The notes under the pieces are model-generated. The model worked only from the letters and a program-made list of their open reading frames with translations, made no database searches and had not been told where the DNA came from. A stretch of 64,000 nucleotides of DNA, taken from positions 137,516 to 201,515 of the forward strand of contig JAILZL010000001.1 of the NCBI GenBank assembly GCA_023512475.1, given 5' to 3'. The position numbers and the translations under genes are program-made. Of this stretch, positions 42,687 through 54,193 are shown one piece after another (within the stretch, counting starts at the first letter, position 1; every line of letters begins with the position of its first letter). This DNA is from Syntrophobacterales bacterium. GTDB lineage: Bacteria > Desulfobacterota > Desulfobaccia > Desulfobaccales > 0-14-0-80-60-11.

Positions 42687-43268
42687 TTGGCTGTGGGAAT
42701 ACTTCTGGGGTCGGCCCTGCCGGTGCCGGCCCAGCCCGGGGGGCCGCCGGCCGTGCGCCGGCCGATGCCGCAGCAGCTCTTTCACACCGAGCGGGTGGAT
42801 GTGGTCTATGACCGCCGGGAGCATCTGGAGGAACTGGCCCGCCGGCTGGGGATCGCCCCGCCGGGTCCCGGAGCGCCTCCGGACCTGGGGGCCTTGGCCC
42901 TCCGGCTGGATGACATGCTGGCGGAGATCACCCGGGTGCTGCAGCGCCGGCCGCCACCGGGGGTGCGGCTGCGCCTGCGCCTCCTTCCCGATGCCCTGGC
43001 GGTGCGCCGGGAGCATGACGCCCTCACCGGCCGGGGAGCCCGGACTCCCGCTCCCCGGGGGTGGCTCCCGGCCTTCTATGAGCCCCGCCGCCGCACCCTG
43101 TACCTCTCGGTGGCGGACGCCCGGGTGGGGATTCTGGCCCACGAGCTGACCCACTTCGTCATCAGTGAGTCCCCGGGGGGGCGCCCCAGCGAGGCCTTTC
43201 AGGAATCCCTGGCCCGCTACCTGGAGGAGCGCTACCTCTCCGGGCGTTCCTTCGAGTTCCGGCCCTGA
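42687..43268 (+). CDS. Small exported protein with HExxH motif, putative metallopeptidase
   Basis: TTG start; hydrophobic leader ending ALPVPAQ; GILAHELTHFVISESPGGRPSEAFQESLARYLEERY. Confidence 0.65.
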   Translation: MAVGILLGSALPVPAQPGGPPAVRRPMPQQLFHTERVDVVYDRREHLEELARRLGIAPPGPGAPPDLGALALRLDDMLAEITRVLQRRPPPGVRLRLRLLPDALAVRREHDALTGRGARTPAPRGWLPAFYEPRRRTLYLSVADARVGILAHELTHFVISESPGGRPSEAFQESLARYLEERYLSGRSFEFRP

Positions 43269-43498: not shown

Positions 43499-45343
43499 TC
43501 AGCCTTCCCGGCCGGGGAGGAGGCGGAACATCTGCCGCCTGGCCCCAGGCTCCAGATGAAACTCCGCCGGCAGAGGTGCGGCCAGAGCTCCCTGGAAGGC
43601 CCGGCCCAGAGGGGTGGGCAGCAGGCGGCCCCGCTGGCGGCTCACCAGCGCCCCGGGCTCCTCGGTCCAGTGGGCGGCCAGCCAGTGGATGCCGGCCTGG
43701 GCCAGCCGGGGGCTTAAGGCCTGCACCTGGCGGGACTCCAGGGGCACGGCCCGCCACCCCAGCACCGCCGCGGGTTGGCGCCGGCCGGTCTGCAAAAGCC
43801 GGCGCACGGCCTCCTGGCCCCCGGAGGCCGAAAGCTCCAGGCCGTAGATGAGGTTGGCCACCTGGGAGCCGTCGGAGTAGCGCAGAGGGAAGCCGCTGAG
43901 GTCCCCGGCCAGCCCCGGGGCCAGGACCACCGCCCGGGGATGCTCCCGGCGCAGCTCCCCCAGCATGGCCAAAAGATGGTTGCGCCACACCGGCCAGGTG
44001 ACCCGGGGGAGCAGCCGGGCGGTGGCATCGCCCGGGCCGGGGTCGTGGGGGGAGCCGAAGAGCTGGAAGAGCACCGCCGGCTCATGGGCATAGCGCCGGG
44101 CCAGGATCCCCCAGAAATCCAGGGAGCCCGGATCCGGCAGGGGCGGGTCGTAGCTCGCGCCCCCGGGACCCCGGTGCGTGGGCAGCACGCTGGAGAGGAG
44201 GGAGAGCTGCACGATGGTGTACAGACCGGCGGCTGCCGCGGCCTCCACCGCAGCGTCCAGGGCCTCCAGATAATCCTCGCCCTCGGCTTCACCCCGGCCT
44301 TCCAGGGCCAGATCCTGGGCCAGGGGCAGCCGCACCGCGGTGGCCCCCCAGGCGCGGAGCAGGGCCGCCTCCTCGGGGCTCACGGGCACGGGAAAGGCGC
44401 CCTGGTGCGGGGCGGCCCGCTCCAGCCCCCGCAGGGTGACGCCCCGGAGAATCCGCACCCGGTCCCGTTCATCCACCACAAAGCGCCCCTCCACCCCCAG
44501 CCAGGGGAGGTGGCCGGACAGCACCCCGCTGGGCAGGCGGGCGGCTCCGGGCCGGGGATGGGGATTGTCCGCCGGCACGCAGGGGAGGCGGGCCGGTGGG
44601 GGGGGCCCCAGGGACGGCCGCCACTTCGGGGTGAGGCAGGTGGAGGCGGTGCGTGAACGCTTCTCCGGTCGGCGGGAGCCTGCCCGCGGGCGCTCTGCGG
44701 TCCGCCCTTTTTTCTGCGCCGCCAGGTGGCCGGTGGCCGGAGCCCGGGGCTTTTCGGGGGGCCGGGGGCGTCTTGCCCGGGGAGGCGCGGCCGCGGTCCG
44801 GGGGCGGGAGGGCGGGGGCGCCCCATTGTCCCGGGGCCGGGCTGCCCGCCGCTTTTCCTGAGGCTTTTTCCCCTCCCGCATGGCCGGCAGGTCCCGACGC
44901 GGCTTCTCTTTTCCCCGTGTGGCCGGGGCGCGGCGACTTGAGGTCTCCCTTTCCGGCCGGGGCGGGGTTGTGGGGGATGAGGCCTCACCCGGCGGCCGCG
45001 GCCGCCCTTTGGCCTTTTCGGTTCGCTTTGGGCTTTCCCGGGCGGTCCGCCGGACCTGCCGCCTGTCCTCCCGGGATTCCTGCTCCTTGGCCGCCTGCCG
45101 CCTTTCCTGCCGGCGTCGGGCCCCGAGCCGTTGCCGGCGGGCGGCCTCCTGTTCCTGCCGGCGCCGCTCGGCTTCCTCCCGCTCCCGGGCCTCCTGGAGC
45201 CCTTTGGCCCGGCGGGCCTCCTGGCGCTCACGCTCCCGGGCCCGGGCCGCCGCCTCCGCCCGCCGCTCCTCCTCCCGCCGGCGGACCCGGGCCGCCTCCC
45301 GTTCTGCCCGGCGGCGCTCTGCGGCTCTGTCTGTGCGGCTCAT
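43499..45343 (-). CDS. GH5-like protein with degenerate acid/base motif and long Arg/Glu-rich N-terminal region
   Basis: GH5-like region (ILRGVTLRGLE, ATAVRLPLAQDLAL, AVLFQLFGSPHDP) resembling 45685-48396; N-terminal ~250 aa low complexity. Confidence 0.72.
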   Translation of the reverse strand: MSRTDRAAERRRAEREAARVRRREEERRAEAAARARERERQEARRAKGLQEAREREEAERRRQEQEAARRQRLGARRRQERRQAAKEQESREDRRQVRRTARESPKRTEKAKGRPRPPGEASSPTTPPRPERETSSRRAPATRGKEKPRRDLPAMREGKKPQEKRRAARPRDNGAPPPSRPRTAAAPPRARRPRPPEKPRAPATGHLAAQKKGRTAERPRAGSRRPEKRSRTASTCLTPKWRPSLGPPPPARLPCVPADNPHPRPGAARLPSGVLSGHLPWLGVEGRFVVDERDRVRILRGVTLRGLERAAPHQGAFPVPVSPEEAALLRAWGATAVRLPLAQDLALEGRGEAEGEDYLEALDAAVEAAAAAGLYTIVQLSLLSSVLPTHRGPGGASYDPPLPDPGSLDFWGILARRYAHEPAVLFQLFGSPHDPGPGDATARLLPRVTWPVWRNHLLAMLGELRREHPRAVVLAPGLAGDLSGFPLRYSDGSQVANLIYGLELSASGGQEAVRRLLQTGRRQPAAVLGWRAVPLESRQVQALSPRLAQAGIHWLAAHWTEEPGALVSRQRGRLLPTPLGRAFQGALAAPLPAEFHLEPGARRQMFRLLPGREG

Positions 45344-45424
45344 GCTGAGGTCTCCTGGGCGCCTTTGGGGGCAGGCCCGGTGAAAGGGACCTTTCGAAAA
45401 GCCGGGGCGCCGGCCCTGCCCCTC

Positions 45425-45688
45425 TCAGGCGACTCCCGGCTCCCCGGGCTCTTCCGGCTCTTCCGGCTGGCGGGCCCAGACCTGCTGCAGGGCCTCCTGC
45501 AGGCGGGGGAAGAGGCGGGCCTCCATCTCCTTAAGCTCCCGGTCCAGGGCCTGGGCCCTGGCCGGGTCCACCTCCGCCGCTTCCAGACGCTCCACCAGCA
45601 GGGCTTCGAAGCGGTCCAGGTCCTGGGGGCGGGCCTGGGGGTTAAGGGCCAGAACCGCGGCCCGCTCCTCGGGGCTCAGGGCCATCAT
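45425..45688 (-). CDS. Small predicted helical protein
   Basis: MMALSPEERAAVLALNPQARPQDLDRFEALLVERLEAAEVDP; start overlaps stop of upstream gene. Confidence 0.6.
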   Translation of the reverse strand: MMALSPEERAAVLALNPQARPQDLDRFEALLVERLEAAEVDPARAQALDRELKEMEARLFPRLQEALQQVWARQPEEPEEPGEPGVA

Positions 45689-48396
45689 CGTCCCAGCTTC
45701 CATTCCAGGCGGTCCCGGAGAAATTTCAGGGTCAGCCGGTCCAGGCGGCAGCGGGTCATGGCGCCCTGGTAATAATAATCATCCATCAGATTGGGAAACC
45801 GGGGGTGGATGAGCTCCGGGTGGTAGCTGCGCCAGGAGGCCGGATACCCCCGGCCGTCCCGGCGGGGGTCGCTGGCGTAGCTCTGCCCGTCATAATCGGC
45901 AAAGCGCCGGGGGACGGGTCCCCCGGCCCGGGCCCGGCGCTTGCGGTTGACGCTGAAAAGTACCGGTGGGCTGTCAACATAAAGATCGGTGACGCCGCCG
46001 TTATCCCTCTCCCCCAAGGCATGGATAAGCTCGTGGAGCGGGGTCAGGACAGAGGCAGGGGGGGCGTGCAGGGCCACCACCCCCGGTTCCCGGGCCCGGC
46101 GGCGGTGATGATACTCCACCTGGTCATAGAGAAAACGGCGCCCCGCCGAGGCGGCGTCGTCCAGGGTGCGGTGGGCCGAGCTGCGCCGGTGGCTGGCGGA
46201 ATGAAAGAGCACGAAGCAGACATCGGCGCTCAGCCCTTTCGCCGCCAGATAGGCCTGGACCCGCGGCCGCATGGCCTCCATGGTGGCCCCGGCGATCTGT
46301 CGGCACAGGGCATGGGCCGGTACCACCGCCTCCGGAGCGAAGCGGGCCACCACCCGGATGTCCAGGGCATAGGGGTGCAGGAGAGTCTCCCGCCGGCCGA
46401 AGAGGGAGCGCAGGGCCTCGGCCACCGCCCGGTGAAAACGGTCCCGGCGGGCCAGGAGGGGGTCGGCGGCCACGGCCCCCGTCCGGGTCTCCACCACCGG
46501 GTTGGCCAGAAAGAGGATAGTGAAGCGGCGCGCCGCCGGCTTGCTCTCGTCCCCGGGATAAATCTCGCTGACGTCGCCGGGGGCGGCCGCCACCACCAGC
46601 CGGATGGGGTCGCTTCGGACCCCGTCCGGGCGCACCACCTCACACAGCACCTCCCCCAGCGGCACCGCGGCGGGCAGCTGCGGCACCAGCAGCAGATGGG
46701 GGAGAATCACCCGGGGCGCCACCCACACCGTGGCCCCCGGGGTGGAGAAAAGGACGCGGGTGCCGGGGGTGAAGTCATGGCCCTGCACCGCGAAAAAATC
46801 CTCCCGCCGGGCCGGGGTGGCGGTGATGAAGAAGCGGCCCCGGCCCCCCCGGAGCCGATCCAGGGCAAAGGCCAGCCGGGGGAAGGCGGGCATGGTGCCC
46901 AGGGCCGCCTTGACCAGCTCCCCGAACTCCGTGGGCCGGTGGTGGGGGCCATCCAGGATGTAGGTGCGCCAGGTGACCTGAGTGCCGTTGGGCAGGGTGC
47001 GGCTGCCGGTGCCCCGCTCCACCAGCAGGGGCCGGTCGGCCCAGGACCAGGCGGTCCAGCCGGCCAGACCGGGCCACACCCCCTGGCGGAAGCGGTGCAG
47101 GTCCCGGAGATACTGCTCCAGCTCCAGGCCCCAGCGGAGCTGGGCCGCCTCCCCGCCCCATTCGGTGAGGAAGATGGGATGGGCCTCCCGCAGGCGGGGA
47201 AAGCCGAACCAGTGATCCCAGTCGGCCGGGGTGGCGGTGCTGCGGCCGGGGGTGGTGTGATGATAGACGTGGGCGGCATAGACCGCATTGGGCAGGGTGC
47301 GGCCGCCGGGGAGGGGCACCGGAAAGTGGCGCAGGTTGAGGGCCCAGTCCCAGCCGCTGACAAAGAGGAGGGCCCGGCCGTGCTCCCGGTGGATCACCTG
47401 CTCCAGACGGCGGACCCAGGAGTGCCAGTGGTCCACCCACTCCCCCTCCGTGGCCAGGGCGGGGGTGAGGGCGGCCTGGTCGTCGGCCAGGGGCACGTGG
47501 GGTTCATTGAAAAGGTCAAAAAGCACCGCCGGCTCCCGCCGGTAGCGGGCCGCCAGCAGCCGCCAGAGGCGCACGGAATTCTCCTCCGGCATCGGCGGCA
47601 CCCGGTTCACCCGGCCGTCCGCCAGGTGCCCGAACTCCCGGTGGGTGTCGAACCACTGCAGATCCAGCAGGGTATAGGCGCCCTCCGCCGCGGCCCATTC
47701 AATGATGCGGTCCAGGTTGGCCAGGTAATCCTCCCGGGTGAGGGCCCACTCCTGGTTGAGGGGCAGGCGGATGATATTGGCCCGCCAGTGGCGAACGATC
47801 TCCCGGATGAGCTCCCGGGTGATGCCCGCGGCCTCCCGGGAGGTGGGCCGCCGCACCCCGGTGGGGTCCAAGCCCCCCCGGTCGGTGTACTCCATGCCGG
47901 AGAGGTTCACCCCCCGGAGCACCACCGGGTCGTCGTCCTCATCCACTAGGCGGTTGCCCGCCACTCGGAGCCACTTCAGGTTCCCGGAGAGGCGGCGGCG
48001 CACCGGCGGCAGGCGGGTGCCCGGCGGGGCCAGATAAATGGCGGGAGCCTGCCGGAAGTCGTGGGCCGCCAGGCTCTCCTCTTCCCGTTGGCGGCGGGGT
48101 AGGGGCCCATCGTAGGCAATGGCCCGGTAATACAGGTAGGGGTAGCGGCGCAGGGCCCGCCAGGCGGCCTCATCCAGCTGATAGCGGGCCCTGCCCTGCC
48201 GCACCGCCAGGGCGCCTTCGTCCCGGGAGGTGGAGAAATTCTCCGGCCGGCGCCTCCCCGCCAGCGCGCCGTTGAAGAGCACCGGGTCGCAGGTGACCTC
48301 CACCTCGCAGAACTGGCGGTCCGTCCTGATGGTGAAGGCCGGAGGCGGCCCGGTGGGATCCACCGTGGGACGCTCCGCCCGGATGCGCACCGTCAT
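45685..48396 (-). CDS. GH5-like glycoside hydrolase fused to a C-terminal HExxHxxGxxD metallopeptidase-like domain
   Basis: VVLRGVNLSGMEY, FDLFNEPHVP, PIFLTEWGGEA; C-terminal LHELIHALGERDNGG and NLMDDYYY. Confidence 0.8.
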   Translation of the reverse strand: MTVRIRAERPTVDPTGPPPAFTIRTDRQFCEVEVTCDPVLFNGALAGRRRPENFSTSRDEGALAVRQGRARYQLDEAAWRALRRYPYLYYRAIAYDGPLPRRQREEESLAAHDFRQAPAIYLAPPGTRLPPVRRRLSGNLKWLRVAGNRLVDEDDDPVVLRGVNLSGMEYTDRGGLDPTGVRRPTSREAAGITRELIREIVRHWRANIIRLPLNQEWALTREDYLANLDRIIEWAAAEGAYTLLDLQWFDTHREFGHLADGRVNRVPPMPEENSVRLWRLLAARYRREPAVLFDLFNEPHVPLADDQAALTPALATEGEWVDHWHSWVRRLEQVIHREHGRALLFVSGWDWALNLRHFPVPLPGGRTLPNAVYAAHVYHHTTPGRSTATPADWDHWFGFPRLREAHPIFLTEWGGEAAQLRWGLELEQYLRDLHRFRQGVWPGLAGWTAWSWADRPLLVERGTGSRTLPNGTQVTWRTYILDGPHHRPTEFGELVKAALGTMPAFPRLAFALDRLRGGRGRFFITATPARREDFFAVQGHDFTPGTRVLFSTPGATVWVAPRVILPHLLLVPQLPAAVPLGEVLCEVVRPDGVRSDPIRLVVAAAPGDVSEIYPGDESKPAARRFTILFLANPVVETRTGAVAADPLLARRDRFHRAVAEALRSLFGRRETLLHPYALDIRVVARFAPEAVVPAHALCRQIAGATMEAMRPRVQAYLAAKGLSADVCFVLFHSASHRRSSAHRTLDDAASAGRRFLYDQVEYHHRRRAREPGVVALHAPPASVLTPLHELIHALGERDNGGVTDLYVDSPPVLFSVNRKRRARAGGPVPRRFADYDGQSYASDPRRDGRGYPASWRSYHPELIHPRFPNLMDDYYYQGAMTRCRLDRLTLKFLRDRLEWKLGR

Positions 48397-48397
48397 C

Positions 48398-49198
48398 TCA
48401 GCCTCCGGAAAGGTCCCGGGCCACCGCCGCCAGGGCCGCGGCCAGCTGCCCCAGGTGCTCCTCCGCGGGCCGGGGCGGCAGCGCCGCCAGACGCCCGGCC
48501 AGCTCCCGGGCCGCCGGCGCCAGTTTCGGGACCTGGCCGGCCAGGGCGGTGAGGCTCTCCGCCACCGGCCGGAGGGCGTCGGCCACCTCCTCGGGGGCCT
48601 CAGGCGGGGCCGCCAGCACCCCCGAGAGCCGGGCCAGGGCCGTGGCCGCCAGCGGGGCCGCCGCCGGGGGAAATTCCCGGGCGAGGGCTTCCTGCAGCGC
48701 CTGGGCGGCCATCAGGACCGCCGCCAGGCCCCGGGCGCACGCCTCCTCCCACCGTCCCGGCGGGGTGGGCCGGACGGTGAGGGAGAGGGTGCTCAAGGTG
48801 TGGGGCGGAAAGAGGCCCGCCGCGGCCACCTGCAGCCCCGCGGCCCTCTCCTCCACCTGCAGGGCCGCTTTGAGCTCCAGACGGGCGTCGGCAATGACCC
48901 GGCCCCTCAGGCCCCGGGAGCCGGCCTCCAGGGCCTCCAGCACCGCCGCCAGGATCTCCTCCAGGGGCATCCCCCGGCGCCGGGCCACCGCCTCCTTGAG
49001 CTTTTCCCGCACCTCCCCCAGCTGGCTCTGGAGCCTCTCCAGGAACGCCTTCAGGCGGGCGTTTTCCCGCTCCAGCTCCGCCCGGACGCCCAGCGCGGCG
49101 TCCCGCTCCCGCCTCATGGTCTGGACCAGGGCCTCCGCCACCTCGGCCCGCACCTGGGCCAGGGTGGCCTGGCGGCGGTAGAAGTCCAGTTCGGCCAC
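48398..49198 (-). CDS. Coiled-coil protein of unknown function
   Basis: Helical N-half (ERENARLKAFLERLQSQLGEVREKLKEAV) then ARLELKAALQVEE..TLSTLSLTVRPTPP; 1-nt gap to next gene. Confidence 0.65.
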   Translation of the reverse strand: MAELDFYRRQATLAQVRAEVAEALVQTMRRERDAALGVRAELERENARLKAFLERLQSQLGEVREKLKEAVARRRGMPLEEILAAVLEALEAGSRGLRGRVIADARLELKAALQVEERAAGLQVAAAGLFPPHTLSTLSLTVRPTPPGRWEEACARGLAAVLMAAQALQEALAREFPPAAAPLAATALARLSGVLAAPPEAPEEVADALRPVAESLTALAGQVPKLAPAARELAGRLAALPPRPAEEHLGQLAAALAAVARDLSGG

Positions 49199-49199
49199 G

Positions 49200-49982
49200 T
49201 CAGTCCTCTTCGGCCCGCACCGTGGGGAGCAGGCGGAAGGTCATGCGCAAAGTGGAGAGGGCCCCGGGCTCCACCTTGCCCGCCTCCGGGGTGACGAAGC
49301 GGGGTTCCGTCTCCCCGGCCCGGGGGGCCTCCAGCACCCCCCGGGCCTCCACCTCCAGGGAGGTGAGGGCGGCGGCGTACTGTTTGCCCGGGGCCGCCCG
49401 GCCCTCCGCCAGGCCCTCCAGCACCCCGGCCAGCCTGCCGGCGAGATCGGTGGGGAAGACGTGCCCCACCACCCCCCGCTCGGCCAGCCGGTCCTGCAGG
49501 TGGGCAATCTCCTCCTTCAGTTTCAGCCGCTCGGCCTGCCATGCCTGACTGGCGGCCTCGTGCTCCCGGGTGACCTGCTCCAGGGCCGCCTTCACCGCCT
49601 GGGATACCTGGCGCTCCACATCGGCCTTGACCTGGGCCAGGTCCTGGAGGGCCTGGTCCCGCTCCCGTTTCCAGACCTCGGCCACCTCCTTGATGGTCCT
49701 CAGGCTCCCCAGCTCCGCCTCCTTGAGGCGCAGCTCCTCCTGGGTTTTGGCCAGGGCGGCCTCCAGCTCCCGCACCCGGCCCTGGGTGACCTCCACCCGC
49801 TGCTTCAGCTCGGCGGTGAGGGCTTCGGCCCGGGCCAGGGACTGCCGGGCCTCCTGGAGGTCCTTGGTGGCCGCCTCCAGCTTGAAGGTCAGCTCCCGGC
49901 GGGACTGTTCCACCAGGTTCAGCTGGGTGCGGACCTGGGCCAGCTCCAGTTTGACGCGTTCCAGTTCTTCCGGGGGAGGCAT
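49200..49982 (-). CDS. Coiled-coil protein of unknown function
   Basis: Long coiled coil then YAAALTSLEVEARGVLEAP..GALSTLRMTFRLLPT. Confidence 0.68.
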   Translation of the reverse strand: MPPPEELERVKLELAQVRTQLNLVEQSRRELTFKLEAATKDLQEARQSLARAEALTAELKQRVEVTQGRVRELEAALAKTQEELRLKEAELGSLRTIKEVAEVWKRERDQALQDLAQVKADVERQVSQAVKAALEQVTREHEAASQAWQAERLKLKEEIAHLQDRLAERGVVGHVFPTDLAGRLAGVLEGLAEGRAAPGKQYAAALTSLEVEARGVLEAPRAGETEPRFVTPEAGKVEPGALSTLRMTFRLLPTVRAEED

Positions 49983-49985
49983 GGC

Positions 49986-50633
49986 TCAGCTCCCCGGGCC
50001 GCCGCGGTGCTCCAGCACCCGGCCCGTTTCGTCGTCCACCTTCACCAGGGCCCGCAGGATGACGGTGCCGTCCTGTTCCGCGGTCTGCACGATGTACCAG
50101 GCCCGGGCGCCGCCGTTGAAATTCAGCGTCACCCGGGGTTCCGGCCGGCCCTGCGCGTCGGTGAAGAGGTGAGGCAGGGCCGCGGCCAGGGCCGCCTCCT
50201 CTGTCAGGGCCGGGGCGAGGGCGGCCGCCCCCGGGGGCGGCACCGCCACCACCGACAACTTCACGGTGCTGGCCGCCTGGATGTCATAGGAGAACTGGTT
50301 GGTGTAGCGGGCATTCACCGGCTGGGCCCACAGCCGGGGCAGGGGCTTTTTGATCACCCCGGCGACCCGGGAAGGCTCCGCCTTGGGGGCCGGTTGTTCC
50401 AGGGCGACCGCGATCTTGAGCTCCAGCTCGGTTTTGGGGATCTGATACCAGGTGGCCTCCAGGCCGTACTGGGAGAGCACCGGGTCCTCGAGGATGAGCT
50501 TCTGGATCTCGATGGAATGGCGGTCCAGTTCCGCCTGGGCCCGGCCGATCCCCGACCCCAGGGCCACCAGCAGCTCCTCCAGGGGCGTGGAGATCAGATC
50601 GGCGATCTGCTGGGCGGGAGTTCCGTTGGGCAT
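49986..50633 (-). CDS. Paralogous protein of unknown function (family member C)
   Basis: DLISTPLEELLVALGSGIGRAQAELDRHS, WYQIPKTELELKIAVALEQ, FSYDIQAASTVKLSVVAVPPP. Confidence 0.72.
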   Translation of the reverse strand: MPNGTPAQQIADLISTPLEELLVALGSGIGRAQAELDRHSIEIQKLILEDPVLSQYGLEATWYQIPKTELELKIAVALEQPAPKAEPSRVAGVIKKPLPRLWAQPVNARYTNQFSYDIQAASTVKLSVVAVPPPGAAALAPALTEEAALAAALPHLFTDAQGRPEPRVTLNFNGGARAWYIVQTAEQDGTVILRALVKVDDETGRVLEHRGGPGS

Positions 50634-50649
50634 AAGGTTCCTCCCGGAT

Positions 50650-51258
50650 TTACGGCGTGCGGGTGATGGTGGGCGGGCTGGTGAAGGTGTTCACCGTGGT
50701 TACCGCCGGCTCCAGGCGGGAGGGGGGCGGCACCGGACGCATCACCGCCCGGAGCACGCTGGCCCCCTGGGCCTGATAGCTGTATTTGTTGGCGGTGCGG
50801 TAATCCACCGTGCCGGCGTGGGCCCGGCTGCGGCCCAGCCCCAGGAACCCCGCGGCCCTCCCCCGGGTCTCCGTCTCCCGCTCCTCCCGCATGGTGATGG
50901 AGAGGCGCACCTCGATGGTGGCCTCGGTGAATTGATAAAACGTGGGCAACAATCCGGCCTGGAACATGCTCATCTTCACCGGCGGGGCCCCGGTGGCGGT
51001 CACCCGGGCGCCGGTGACCGGCACCGTCTCCCTGCGGGTGCCGCCGGCGCCGTCGGGGACCGTCACCTCCACGGTGCGCACCTCCGGCTCGATGATCTCG
51101 GTGACCTCGGTGAGCACCTCCACCTGGGTGTTCACCAGCGCCTTCATGGTTTCCAGGGAGTTGTGATCCAGGGCCGCCTGACCGTCGGCGATGGCCACGG
51201 CCAGGTTGCGCACCAGTTCGGCAAAGGGCAGATCCAGCAAATCGCGGCCGATGGCCAT
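50650..51258 (-). CDS. Paralogous protein of unknown function (family member B)
   Basis: DLLDLPFAELVRNLAVAIADGQAALDHNS, FYQFTEATIEVRLSITM, YSYQAQGASVLRAVMRPVPPPSRL. Confidence 0.78.
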   Translation of the reverse strand: MAIGRDLLDLPFAELVRNLAVAIADGQAALDHNSLETMKALVNTQVEVLTEVTEIIEPEVRTVEVTVPDGAGGTRRETVPVTGARVTATGAPPVKMSMFQAGLLPTFYQFTEATIEVRLSITMREERETETRGRAAGFLGLGRSRAHAGTVDYRTANKYSYQAQGASVLRAVMRPVPPPSRLEPAVTTVNTFTSPPTITRTP

Positions 51259-51279
51259 GGAGACTCCTTTCCGCCGCGC

Positions 51280-51909
51280 TTAACTGATGCTGACGGCCGC
51301 CGGCTGCCCCTGGAGCATGGGCAGGCAGTTGATGGTGAGCACCCGGGGCGTCAGGCGGCTGGGGGGCGGCACCGGCTTCAGGGTGGTCCTGAGCAGGCTG
51401 GAGCCCTCCGCCGAATAGGAGTAGGTGTTGGCGGTCTTGTAATTCACGTGGGAGGCGAAGGAGGCGGAGCCCCAGCCCCAGGAGGCGCTGGCCTCCAGGG
51501 AGGCGCCCACCTCGAATTCGCTGGAACTCGTGGTCTTCTGGGAAATGGACATCTTCACTTCAATGATGGATTCGGTGAACTGATAAAAGGTGGGGGAGAG
51601 CCCCGCCTGGAGCAGGGTCATGTCCTCCGGGTCCATGCTGTCGAACTTCACCCGGGCGCCGGTGACGATGATGGTCTCCCTCCGGGGGGTGCCGTCCTGA
51701 TCCCGCACCGTCACCTCCACGGTGCGGAAATCCGGCTCGATGATCTCCTGGATCTCCTGGATGAGCTTCACTTTTTCCCGGGCCAGCATGCGGGCGGTGG
51801 ACAGCGAGGTGCGGTCCAGGGCCAGCTGACCCTTGGCGATGGCGAAGGCGAGGTTCATCACCATCTCGGGAAAGGGGACGTCCAACAGGTCTCTGCCGAC
51901 ACTTCTCAT
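51280..51909 (-). CDS. Paralogous protein of unknown function (family member A)
   Basis: DLLDVPFPEMVMNLAFAIAKGQLALDRTS, FYQFTESIIEVKMSISQ, YSYSAEGSSLLRTTLKPVPPPSRL. Confidence 0.78.
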   Translation of the reverse strand: MRSVGRDLLDVPFPEMVMNLAFAIAKGQLALDRTSLSTARMLAREKVKLIQEIQEIIEPDFRTVEVTVRDQDGTPRRETIIVTGARVKFDSMDPEDMTLLQAGLSPTFYQFTESIIEVKMSISQKTTSSSEFEVGASLEASASWGWGSASFASHVNYKTANTYSYSAEGSSLLRTTLKPVPPPSRLTPRVLTINCLPMLQGQPAAVSIS

Positions 51910-52009
51910 ACAACCTCCTTGTCAGTGAGCTGGCCAGGACCGGAGGCCCGGAGGATGAAGGTTTTCGGTGAAGGGGGACCCCGGCCCGCCTTCCCCCCCC
52001 CTTACCGGT

Positions 52010-54193
52010 TCAGGCCGCGGGCGGCCCGCCCTCCCGGGCGAGGAGCTGCCGCACGGCGTTGAGGGCGAAGTGCTTCTTCAGGGCCCGGACCGCCTTGCCT
52101 TGGCCGTCCAGCTGCACGCCGCCCACGAAACTCACCAGCGGACAGGACCTCAGGACCTCCTTGCCCCCCGGGGGCATGCCGACGATGAAGCTCCCCCCGG
52201 CGGTGGCCATGAGGAGAAGACCGCCGTGGCGGGCCAGGTATTCCCTGAGGCGCCGGGCCACTTCCGGCCCCTGCTGGCCCTCGTGGGGCCGGACGAGGAA
52301 GAGCTCCGGCTCCGGCCCGGCGGGCCCGGGGGCGGCCTGACGCCGGGGCTGGCCCTTCAGGGCCAGGTGCCGCAGGCGCTCCAGGGCCTCCTCCCCCACC
52401 GCCACCAGGGCCCGCTGCCAGGCCTCCTGGCGGCGCCACTCGGAGAAGCCCTGGTCGGTGAAGAGCAGCCGCACCTGGTGCACCGGCGGCAGGGGGATGG
52501 GCGGCCACAGGGCGCTGGGGCCCACATACGGCACCCCCAGGGCGGCGCAGGCCAGGTCCAGGTCCGGGGCCCCGGTGCCGGAGCAGTCGATGACCAGGGA
52601 GATATGGGCCAGAGCCGGCAGCAGCTCCTCCACCGGCAGGCGCACCGGACTCTCGGGGTCGCCGCCGGGCCGGGGCACCGCCACCGCCAGCCCCGGGAAG
52701 ATGCGCTTCAGGAGCACCGCCAGGGAGAGCTCCGGCGGGCTCACCAGCACATAGCCGATGGTGGGGCGGGGGGCTCCGGGAAAGAAGGGGGGCAGTCTCA
52801 CCGGGATGCTGAGCTCCTCCCCCCGCCGGAAGGCCTCCTGGCGGATCTGGGCGCTCACCTCCCCCGCCCGGCGCTCCGCCAGCCTCAGGCTTACCCGGGT
52901 GCCGGGTGGCAGGGGCGCCAACGTCTCGGAGACCACCCCCTTCACTTCCGGGGGCAGATCCGGCAGGCTGGGGGCCGCTTCCCCCGCGGTCCAGGTGATG
53001 AGGCGGGAGCGCACCGGCTTGCGCCGGGGCGGGGCCCGGTGCAGGACCTCCTCCCATTGCCGGAGGATGTGGTCCCAGCTGTAGCCCAGGGCGAATTCCC
53101 GGGAGCGGCGGCTCCTCTCCGCCAACAGGCCGGGGTCGGCGTACAGGGCGGTGAGGGCCGCCACCGCCGCCTCCCGGTCCATGAGGCCCCGGACCAGGCC
53201 GAATTCATCCACCACCCCGCACTCCGCCGGGATGGCAAAACCATGCCCCGCCACCAGCTCCCGGCTGGCGGTGTAGGCCAGGGCCACGGGCACCACCCCG
53301 GCGCTGGCGGCCTGCAGGTTGGGGAGGCCGAAGCCCTCCCCCCAGGAGGTGAGGAGGTGCACATCCGCGGCGGCATAAATCTCCGCCAGCCGCTCCAGGG
53401 GGATGCCCCCGGAGGCCCGCATGCGGAAGCCCGGGGTGAAGCGTACCCGGTCCCTCAGCCCCAACGCCTCCAGGTCCTGGCGGATATTGTAGCGGTAGAG
53501 GTCACTGCGGGCCGCGTCATCCTCCGGGTCGGCGTGCAGGTGCAACAGCGCCTCCGGTTTGTCCCGGGCGAAGGCGGCGAAGATGTCCAGGAGCCGGGGC
53601 AGGAGCTTGCGGGGCTGGTTGCGGGCATCGGAGAGCACCACAAAGCGCCCTTCATACCCCAGGCGGGCCTTGGCCGCCGCCTTGTCAGCGGGCGGCGCGA
53701 AGAGCCCGGTGTCCACCCCGTGTGGGATGTAGGCAGCCGGGATGCCGCAGGCGGCGGAGACCTCCATGCCGAAGCGGCTCATGGCCACCGGCACATCGGC
53801 ACAGGACAGCACCTTCACCCAGCCGGCGGGGAGACGCCCCTCCGGGTCGGCCCCGTCCACCGGGTAGTAATGCACCCAGCGGGTCCCGGACTGGTCCAGA
53901 TAGCGCTGCACCGGCGGCTCGGTGAGGAAGCTCATCCACCAGATATCCGCCAGGGTGATGAGGAAGTGGGGCTGCAGGCGGTGGAGATAGCCCAGGAGAA
54001 CGTCGGCCCCGAAGCGGTCCCGGCGGACGGGGTGCACCGGGATGCCCTCCCAATGGGTGGTGGTGCCATACGCCTGCCAACCCAGGATCTCCAGACGGTG
54101 GCCCCGGCGGGCCAGCCGGCGGCAAACCTCCCGGGTGACCCCTCCGAAGCCGGAGGGGGTGGTGGGACTGTCGGAGACCCACAAGAGCCTCAT
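52010..54193 (-). CDS. GT4-like glycosyltransferase with ~300-aa C-terminal extension
   Basis: MRLLWVSDSPTTPSGFGGVTREVCRRLARRGHRLEILGW, IPHGVDTGLF, SWGEGFGLPNLQAASAGVVPV. Confidence 0.84.
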   Translation of the reverse strand: MRLLWVSDSPTTPSGFGGVTREVCRRLARRGHRLEILGWQAYGTTTHWEGIPVHPVRRDRFGADVLLGYLHRLQPHFLITLADIWWMSFLTEPPVQRYLDQSGTRWVHYYPVDGADPEGRLPAGWVKVLSCADVPVAMSRFGMEVSAACGIPAAYIPHGVDTGLFAPPADKAAAKARLGYEGRFVVLSDARNQPRKLLPRLLDIFAAFARDKPEALLHLHADPEDDAARSDLYRYNIRQDLEALGLRDRVRFTPGFRMRASGGIPLERLAEIYAAADVHLLTSWGEGFGLPNLQAASAGVVPVALAYTASRELVAGHGFAIPAECGVVDEFGLVRGLMDREAAVAALTALYADPGLLAERSRRSREFALGYSWDHILRQWEEVLHRAPPRRKPVRSRLITWTAGEAAPSLPDLPPEVKGVVSETLAPLPPGTRVSLRLAERRAGEVSAQIRQEAFRRGEELSIPVRLPPFFPGAPRPTIGYVLVSPPELSLAVLLKRIFPGLAVAVPRPGGDPESPVRLPVEELLPALAHISLVIDCSGTGAPDLDLACAALGVPYVGPSALWPPIPLPPVHQVRLLFTDQGFSEWRRQEAWQRALVAVGEEALERLRHLALKGQPRRQAAPGPAGPEPELFLVRPHEGQQGPEVARRLREYLARHGGLLLMATAGGSFIVGMPPGGKEVLRSCPLVSFVGGVQLDGQGKAVRALKKHFALNAVRQLLAREGGPPAA

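What the first reader, a model, noticed from the sequence alone, without database searches (positions are those of the whole stretch)
43499..54193. Candidate undescribed operon: glycosyltransferase, paralogous helix-plus-beta proteins, GH5-metallopeptidase fusion and GH5-like pseudoenzyme
Nine same-strand genes sit in one block with mostly 1-20 nt gaps or short overlaps. They run from a GT4-like protein (52010-54193) through three clear paralogs (49986-51909) and two coiled-coil proteins (48398-49982) to a GH5/HExxH fusion (45685-48396), a small helical protein, and a GH5-like protein. I do not recognise this as any standard pathway, phage, secretion or polysaccharide operon. None of the paralogs or GH5 proteins has an obvious Sec signal peptide. 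Hypothesis only: the paralogs form a multi-subunit assembly and the GT and hydrolase/peptidase genes act as modifiers, processing enzymes or cargo.
Basis: partly seen in the sequence, partly recalled or inferred. Interest (0 to 1): 0.85.

Follow-up and report, generated by a model that had tools for sequence, protein, structure and literature searches.

The report
Uncharacterised protein assembly with sugar enzymes
This bacterium carries a compact set of unstudied genes, whose core (two related protein types, a coiled-coil protein and a small fourth protein) is found side by side in distantly related bacteria and in many methane-making archaea; it probably builds a multi-part protein complex, and in this one genus sugar-building, sugar-cutting and protein-cutting enzymes have been added to it.

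Summary
In detail: nine same-strand ORFs at the stated coordinates, mostly 1-21 nt apart. The core is not a one-off. P1/P2 (family A), P3 (family B) and CC1/CC2 (family C) match a cassette found as A-B-C-D in Methanosarcinales archaea (46 of 151 sampled genomes of the order have A), as D-A-A'-B-C on a Sphaerotilus plasmid and in genome G201, as D-A-B-C in an Acidimicrobiaceae contig and as B-C-A in two other bacteria. D, a ~85-aa protein elsewhere, is here the C-terminus of the glycosyltransferase, which ties that gene to the set. No Pfam, NCBIfam, PHROGs or PDB model names A, B, C or D, but A is a distant branch of DUF2589 (hhalign 95%, E 4e-8). The GH5-metallopeptidase gene accompanies the cassette in 3 of 3 genomes of this genus and was found in none of 77 other genomes searched. 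Its GH5 domain keeps both catalytic glutamates; the second GH5 has lost the NEP motif. Best reading: a cytosolic hetero-oligomeric scaffold of DUF2589-type subunits to which this genus has attached glycan- and peptide-processing enzymes. Assembly, localisation and substrate are inferred; AlphaFold models were poor and Foldseek against PDB gave nothing significant.

The parts
52010..54193 (-). GT: 727 aa; N-terminal GT4 glycosyltransferase (res ~1-390), middle region, C-terminal D domain
   Evidence: Pfam Glycos_transf_1 5e-9; PHROG 2170 2.7e-33; phage GT relatives 26-34% identity
52070..52297 (-). D domain (GT residues ~633-708), a stand-alone ~80-115 aa gene in relatives
   Evidence: Archaeal D profile E 0.0047; with Acidimicrobiaceae, G201 and Sphaerotilus D added E 8e-7; reversed/shuffled control no hit
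51280..51909 (-). P1, family A (DUF2589-like), 209 aa
   Evidence: dS 0.19-0.23 and omega 0.066, like ribosomal protein RpsI nearby
50650..51258 (-). P2, family A paralog (A'), 202 aa
   Evidence: 53% identical to P1; sister of P1 in the tree 99/97
49986..50633 (-). P3, family B, 215 aa with a C-terminal extension absent from archaeal B
   Evidence: B profile E 1e-50 (P3 is in the profile); 29-40% identity to B genes beside A elsewhere; A-B hhalign 99.7%
49200..49982 (-). CC1, family C: coiled coil plus C-terminal beta-type domain
   Evidence: C profile built without window sequences, E 8.6e-8
48398..49198 (-). CC2, family C paralog with helical C-terminal extension
   Evidence: C profile E 1.9e-7; fast evolving, omega 0.41-0.47
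45685..48396 (-). GH5M: 903 aa; N-terminal domain, GH5 domain (res ~135-420), linker domain, HExxH metallopeptidase domain (res ~620-903)
   Evidence: Pfam Cellulase 1.8e-19; PDB 4hty/8bn7 with NEP and second Glu aligned; peptidase domain 37% identical to a stand-alone Bradyrhizobium protein
45425..45703 (-). SM: 92 aa acidic helical protein, genus-specific
   Evidence: ORF conserved 73-75% in both other genus members; no family hit
43499..45343 (-). GH5b: ~260 aa Arg/Lys/Pro-rich tail plus GH5-like pseudoenzyme domain (NEP replaced by GSP)
   Evidence: Pfam Cellulase 6e-7; tail evolves almost freely

Best explanation
The locus encodes a hetero-oligomeric protein assembly built from a distant branch of DUF2589-type subunits (A, A', B: long N-terminal helix followed by beta strands), a coiled-coil spacer family (C) and a small adaptor (D). 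The A/A'/B subunits would pack through their N-terminal helices and shared beta region, C would extend from that core, and D would dock partners. In this genus D has been fused to a GT4 glycosyltransferase, docking that enzyme on the core, and a GH5 glycosidase-metallopeptidase, a small helical protein and a GH5 pseudoenzyme with a basic tail have been added downstream, so that the complex makes, trims or binds a glycan and may process a protein. All nine proteins look cytosolic. Shown: gene set, conservation, families, D fusion, GH5 catalytic residues. Inferred: physical complex, its geometry, docking by D, location and substrate.
For: A-B adjacency in every genome contigs locus not cut by a contig end, with C and, in most, D in fixed order across Methanosarcinales. 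Similar sets in Sphaerotilus, G201, Acidimicrobiaceae, a 'Deltaproteobacteria' MAG and a Spirochaetaceae MAG. D found at the GT C-terminus. P1/P2 have ribosomal-protein-like dS and omega 0.07-0.11, as for abundant structural proteins. Paralogous A, A' and B kept together fit hetero-oligomers. DUF2589 relatives also come as tandem runs (AF0414-AF0417 in PMC3949148). Members are fused to PASTA and DUF4332 helix-hairpin-helix modules, as expected of a scaffold with exchangeable adaptors. The GH5M gene co-occurs with the cassette 3/3 in the genus and 0/77 outside.
Against: No direct evidence of a complex. AlphaFold models are poor (P1 mean pLDDT 65, pTM 0.39; P3 53, 0.37) and Foldseek against PDB finds nothing significant. 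The GH5 genes are absent from every cassette outside the genus, so they may serve another purpose. 100 nt separate GT from P1 and 81 nt precede GH5b, and no sigma70-type promoter was found there to settle transcript boundaries. C-to-A/B homology is not established (hhalign 3-23%).
Confidence: 0.4

Rival explanations
1. Two separate things side by side: a conserved A-B-C-D cassette of unknown role, and a genus-specific glycan/peptide-processing set (GH5M, SM, GH5b) that merely neighbours it.
For: No GH5M or GH5b relative in any non-genus cassette locus; the peptidase domain is a stand-alone protein on rhizobial plasmids.
Against: 1-nt gap between CC2 and GH5M; all three genus genomes keep the order; the GT is linked to the set by its D domain.
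Confidence: 0.3
2. A tail-, injection- or pore-like delivery device: A subunits form a tube or beta-barrel and signal-less hydrolases are its cargo.
For: The Acidimicrobiaceae cassette lies directly downstream of a T4-gp19/TIGR02241 contractile-tail tube protein, the only one found in that genome. Neighbours elsewhere include signal-less hydrolases: SNase beside L039 and a PGAP1-like hydrolase beside G201. The P1 model has a long, low-confidence beta hairpin.
Against: One adjacency on a 7.3-kb contig; no gp19 match in the window's own genome, although the tool's controls were also silent; no sheath, baseplate or ATPase gene recognised in the loci read; Foldseek matches to pore formers all have E above 3.
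Confidence: 0.1
3. A viral or prophage cargo region.
For: The GT N-terminus resembles phage glycosyltransferases; one uncharacterised viral model matches P1 in Foldseek (E 7.6e-4).
Against: No A or B relative in IMG/VR and no P1 relative in GenBank phages; flanks are housekeeping genes (TruA, ArgC, RpsI, RplM); several archaeal copies sit near ribosomal-protein genes.
Confidence: 0.03

Closest known systems
DUF2589 (Pfam PF11655) tandem gene clusters, e.g. AF0414-AF0417 of Archaeoglobus fulgidus
   Same: Paralogs in tandem; N-terminal helix, beta strands and shared motifs (GGWGPxSA...Y); hhalign 95% over the full length
   Different: Pfam's DUF2589 model has no match in the window genome; A forms a separate clade on a long stem (100/100); partners B, C, D, GT and GH5M were not seen in the DUF2589 loci examined
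GH5 cellulases (PDB 4hty, 8bn7)
   Same: GH5M aligns over 284 residues with NEP and the second catalytic Glu conserved
   Different: Fused to an unnamed HExxH metallopeptidase domain, no signal peptide; GH5b has lost the NEP motif
GT4 glycosyltransferases, phage type (PHROG 2170)
   Same: N-terminal ~390 residues
   Different: Extra middle region and a C-terminal D domain
Contractile injection system tube protein gp19 / TIGR02241
   Same: Adjacent to the cassette in one Acidimicrobiaceae contig
   Different: Not found in the window genome; no other system parts seen

Membership tests
DUF2589 (PF11655) | Match to the Pfam model above its cut-off | tested here: not met
   No PF11655 hit for P1-P3 nor in the own genome at E<=1
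DUF2589 (PF11655) | Homology to true members over the whole domain | tested here: met
   hhalign 95%, E 3.8e-8 over 173 columns; phmmer 3e-6 to the L039 (L062) A protein
GH5 glycoside hydrolase (GH5M) | GH5 fold with two catalytic Glu | tested here: met
   Pfam 1.8e-19; NEP and TEWG aligned with 4hty
GH5 glycoside hydrolase (GH5b) | Acid/base Glu in NEP | tested here: not met
   GSP in place of NEP
Zinc metallopeptidase (GH5M C-terminus) | HExxH plus third ligand and Met-turn | tested here: inconclusive
   HExxH and LMD conserved with the Bradyrhizobium homolog; third ligand unknown
Contractile injection system | Tube, sheath, baseplate and ATPase genes in the locus | tested here: inconclusive
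   gp19 search of the own genome empty but its controls were silent; no such genes recognised near the cassette
Prophage | Virion or integration genes in the flanks | tested here: not met
   Housekeeping flanks; no viral relatives of A or B
Hetero-oligomeric assembly | Subunits bind each other | not testable with these tools
   No complex prediction or biochemistry available

The most novel reading that the evidence does not exclude
A previously undescribed cross-domain macromolecular assembly, made of DUF2589-superfamily A/B subunits, coiled-coil C and adaptor D, acts as a general intracellular scaffold onto which different lineages plug enzymes or adaptors: PASTA repeats in Methanosarcinales, DUF4332 helix-hairpin-helix in others, a glycosyltransferase and GH5-peptidase here.
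Probability: 0.35. Interest if true: 0.85.

Novelty: new variant of a known kind. Interest (0 to 1): 0.6.

Why it matters
A gene cassette kept in order across methanogenic and ANME-related archaea and several bacterial phyla, under ribosome-like constraint here yet named in none of the libraries searched, suggests a basic cellular structure that has been overlooked. The D-GT fusion and the GH5-peptidase fusion give a first handle on what such complexes act on, and Methanosarcina offers a genetically workable host to test it. It would also give a first testable setting for DUF2589, for which the open library searched holds a single passing mention.

Tried and rejected
Pfam, PHROGs and NCBIfam scans of A-D: no names. 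PDB sequence search with A: chance hits only. AlphaFold of P1 and P3: low confidence; Foldseek against PDB not significant. Viral origin: no relatives. Contractile-tail reading: one adjacency only, kept as a rival. Literature: DUF2589 in one open paper; no paper found for PF11655 or IPR024510. An eLife paper on conflict systems mentions PASTA-type kinases and Methanosarcina but not this cassette in the passages read. Shared domains between GH5M's N-terminus, middle regions and other cassettes' neighbours: none. C as a homolog of A/B: not established. G084 and G145 carry archaeal-like copies on short contigs and may be contaminated MAGs, so they were not counted as bacterial cases.
Full report
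OBSERVATION. Five of eight junctions are 1-21 nt gaps and one overlaps by 19; GT-P1 (100 nt) and SM-GH5b (81 nt) are larger. Upstream is a divergent HAD-like gene, downstream a convergent plus-strand gene and then ribosomal and biosynthetic genes. Both other available genomes of the genus keep all nine in order; omega is 0.07-0.47, so the ORFs are genuine. P1 and P2 show dS 0.17-0.23 against 0.25-0.49 for most neighbours and 0.19 for ribosomal protein S9, with omega 0.07-0.11. Low dS of this kind fits high expression, although these are short genes and the estimate is rough.

THE CORE IS A CONSERVED CASSETTE. None of P1, P2, P3, CC1 or CC2 has a meaningful Pfam, PHROGs or NCBIfam match; the coiled-coil hits are compositional. 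A scan of 85,488 species genomes with P1 gave 37 loci, most of them Methanosarcinales archaea and related ANME-type lineages. In all but one of these a P3 relative sits beside the P1 relative; the exception (L023) ends 12 bases after A. In L039 and L040 the C gene lies between the two. A third gene (C: coiled coil, a beta-type domain, and in archaea PASTA repeats) and a fourth of ~85 aa (D) follow. With profiles, the order is A-B-C-D wherever the contig is long enough in the Methanosarcinales loci, D-A-B-C in an Acidimicrobiaceae contig, and B-C-A without D in a 'Deltaproteobacteria' MAG (the same genome as G081, so of the window's GTDB phylum) and a Spirochaetaceae MAG; a Methanophagales contig has A-B-C. 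Genome G201 and a Sphaerotilus sulfidivorans plasmid both show D-A-A'-B-C; there the A genes are profile-supported and C in G201 too (E 8e-7), while D, B and the Sphaerotilus C rest on position and visual similarity (archaeal D profile alone: E 3.4 and 150). CC1 and CC2 match the C profile, built without them, at about 1e-7. In a sample of the Methanosarcina order, 46 of 151 genomes have A; in the window's phylum 7 of 298, two of these possibly contamination; in 349 genomes of the Acidimicrobiaceae contig's phylum only that one.

D IS PART OF THE GLYCOSYLTRANSFERASE HERE. The window appeared to lack D. A profile of archaeal D proteins hits GT residues ~633-708 with E 0.0047 in a search space of 4,186 ORFs; adding the Acidimicrobiaceae D (E 0.0007 by itself) gives 2.3e-4, and adding the G201 and Sphaerotilus D proteins, whose membership is partly positional, gives 8e-7. 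Reversed and shuffled GT give nothing. The window order is thus GT[D]-A-A'-B-C-C, matching D-A-A'-B-C elsewhere. This is the best evidence that the GT belongs to the set.

WHAT FAMILY. P1 is a remote relative of Pfam DUF2589: true PF11655 members fetched from the same phylum align with family A at hhalign probability 95%, E 3.8e-8, over the whole length, and one finds the L039 A protein directly at 3e-6. Pfam's own model finds nothing in this genome. In a tree, A is a clade (100/100) on a long stem; P1 and P2 are sisters. B is homologous to A (99.7%). C shares a look-alike motif, but homology is unproven (3-23%). DUF2589 has no known function: one open paper notes that DUF2589-related genes AF0414-AF0417 are up-regulated during growth on lactate (PMC3949148). 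DUF2589 genes also occur in tandem runs. Relatives carry extra modules: PASTA and DUF4332 helix-hairpin-helix in G806 and the Acidimicrobiaceae contig, DUF4332 in G797.

THE ENZYMES. GH5M's GH5 domain aligns with PDB 4hty over 284 residues, with NEP and the second glutamate (TEWG) in register, so it should be active. Its C-terminal ~285 residues are an unnamed HExxH domain with stand-alone relatives on rhizobial plasmids; the Bradyrhizobium copy keeps HExxH and a later LMD, and the Rhizobium copy looks broken. GH5b has GSP instead of NEP, so it is probably a pseudoenzyme, behind a fast-evolving basic tail. GH5M and the cassette co-occur in 3 of 3 genus genomes and GH5M is in none of 77 others sampled. 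No protein of the nine shows a signal peptide or transmembrane segment by a crude hydropathy scan.

MECHANISM. The simplest account is a cytosolic hetero-oligomer of A, A' and B with C as a coiled-coil extension and D as adaptor, to which this genus attaches a GT by fusion and, perhaps, the GH5-peptidase and GH5 pseudoenzyme. Conserved order, retained paralogs and strong constraint support an obligate complex; adaptor swapping supports a scaffold role. Physical assembly, stoichiometry, localisation and substrate are inference. AlphaFold (38 and 33 sequences) predicts an N-terminal helix with moderate confidence and beta strands with mixed to low confidence; Foldseek against PDB returned no significant match; against viral models one uncharacterised 178-aa protein matched P1 at E 7.6e-4, unidentified here.

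RIVALS. The GH5 genes may be neighbours rather than parts (0.3). A tail-, tube- or pore-like delivery device is suggested only by one gp19/TIGR02241 neighbour in an Acidimicrobiaceae contig and by signal-less hydrolases next to some cassettes; it is not excluded but thin (0.1). A phage origin is disfavoured.

VERDICT. A real, conserved and unnamed cassette, best described as a new, divergent branch of the DUF2589 kind with new partners. Interest 0.6: surprising breadth and a clear test path, but function and assembly remain inferred.

Noticed in passing
window 42687-43268 (+): Convergent gene just downstream of GH5b encodes a ~193-aa protein with a hydrophobic N-terminus and a HELTH (HExxH) motif; conserved at 82% in both other genus members.
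   Followed up: partly
window 45685-46539 (-); L082 9944-10900; L083 9654-10456: Unnamed HExxH metallopeptidase domain that also exists as a stand-alone protein on Bradyrhizobium and Rhizobium plasmids; the Rhizobium copy is split and lacks the HE.
   Followed up: partly
L037 510-941: The Acidimicrobiaceae cassette is directly preceded by a T4 gp19/TIGR02241 tail-tube-like protein, the only PF06841 match in that genome, and followed at some distance by a divergent subtilase-PKD protein.
   Followed up: partly
L039 7972-8919; L063 5855-7342: Hydrolases without signal peptides (SNase-like, PGAP1-like alpha/beta hydrolase) lie divergent and next to the cassette in two other genomes.
   Followed up: partly
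L106 7097-8284; L037 3360-4025; L107 6896-7627: DUF4332 helix-hairpin-helix domains recur in or beside DUF2589-like superfamily proteins, sometimes with PASTA.
   Followed up: partly
L107 6896-11861: A genome of the Methanosarcina order has a run of three helix-plus-strand proteins related to A/B a short way from a proteasome-activating AAA ATPase-like gene.
   Followed up: no
L112, L113, L110, L111: Plasmid DUF2589 genes in Vibrio, Fulvitalea and Streptomyces also come as tandem pairs or triples, in Vibrio with a ~92-aa neighbour.
   Followed up: no
L066, L067: Archaeal-type cassettes on short contigs of two bacterial MAGs of the window's phylum look like possible contamination.
   Followed up: no
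window 43499-45343 (-), first ~260 aa of GH5b: Arg/Lys/Pro-rich tail open in all three genus genomes but with pN 0.30-0.45, nearly unconstrained.
   Followed up: partly
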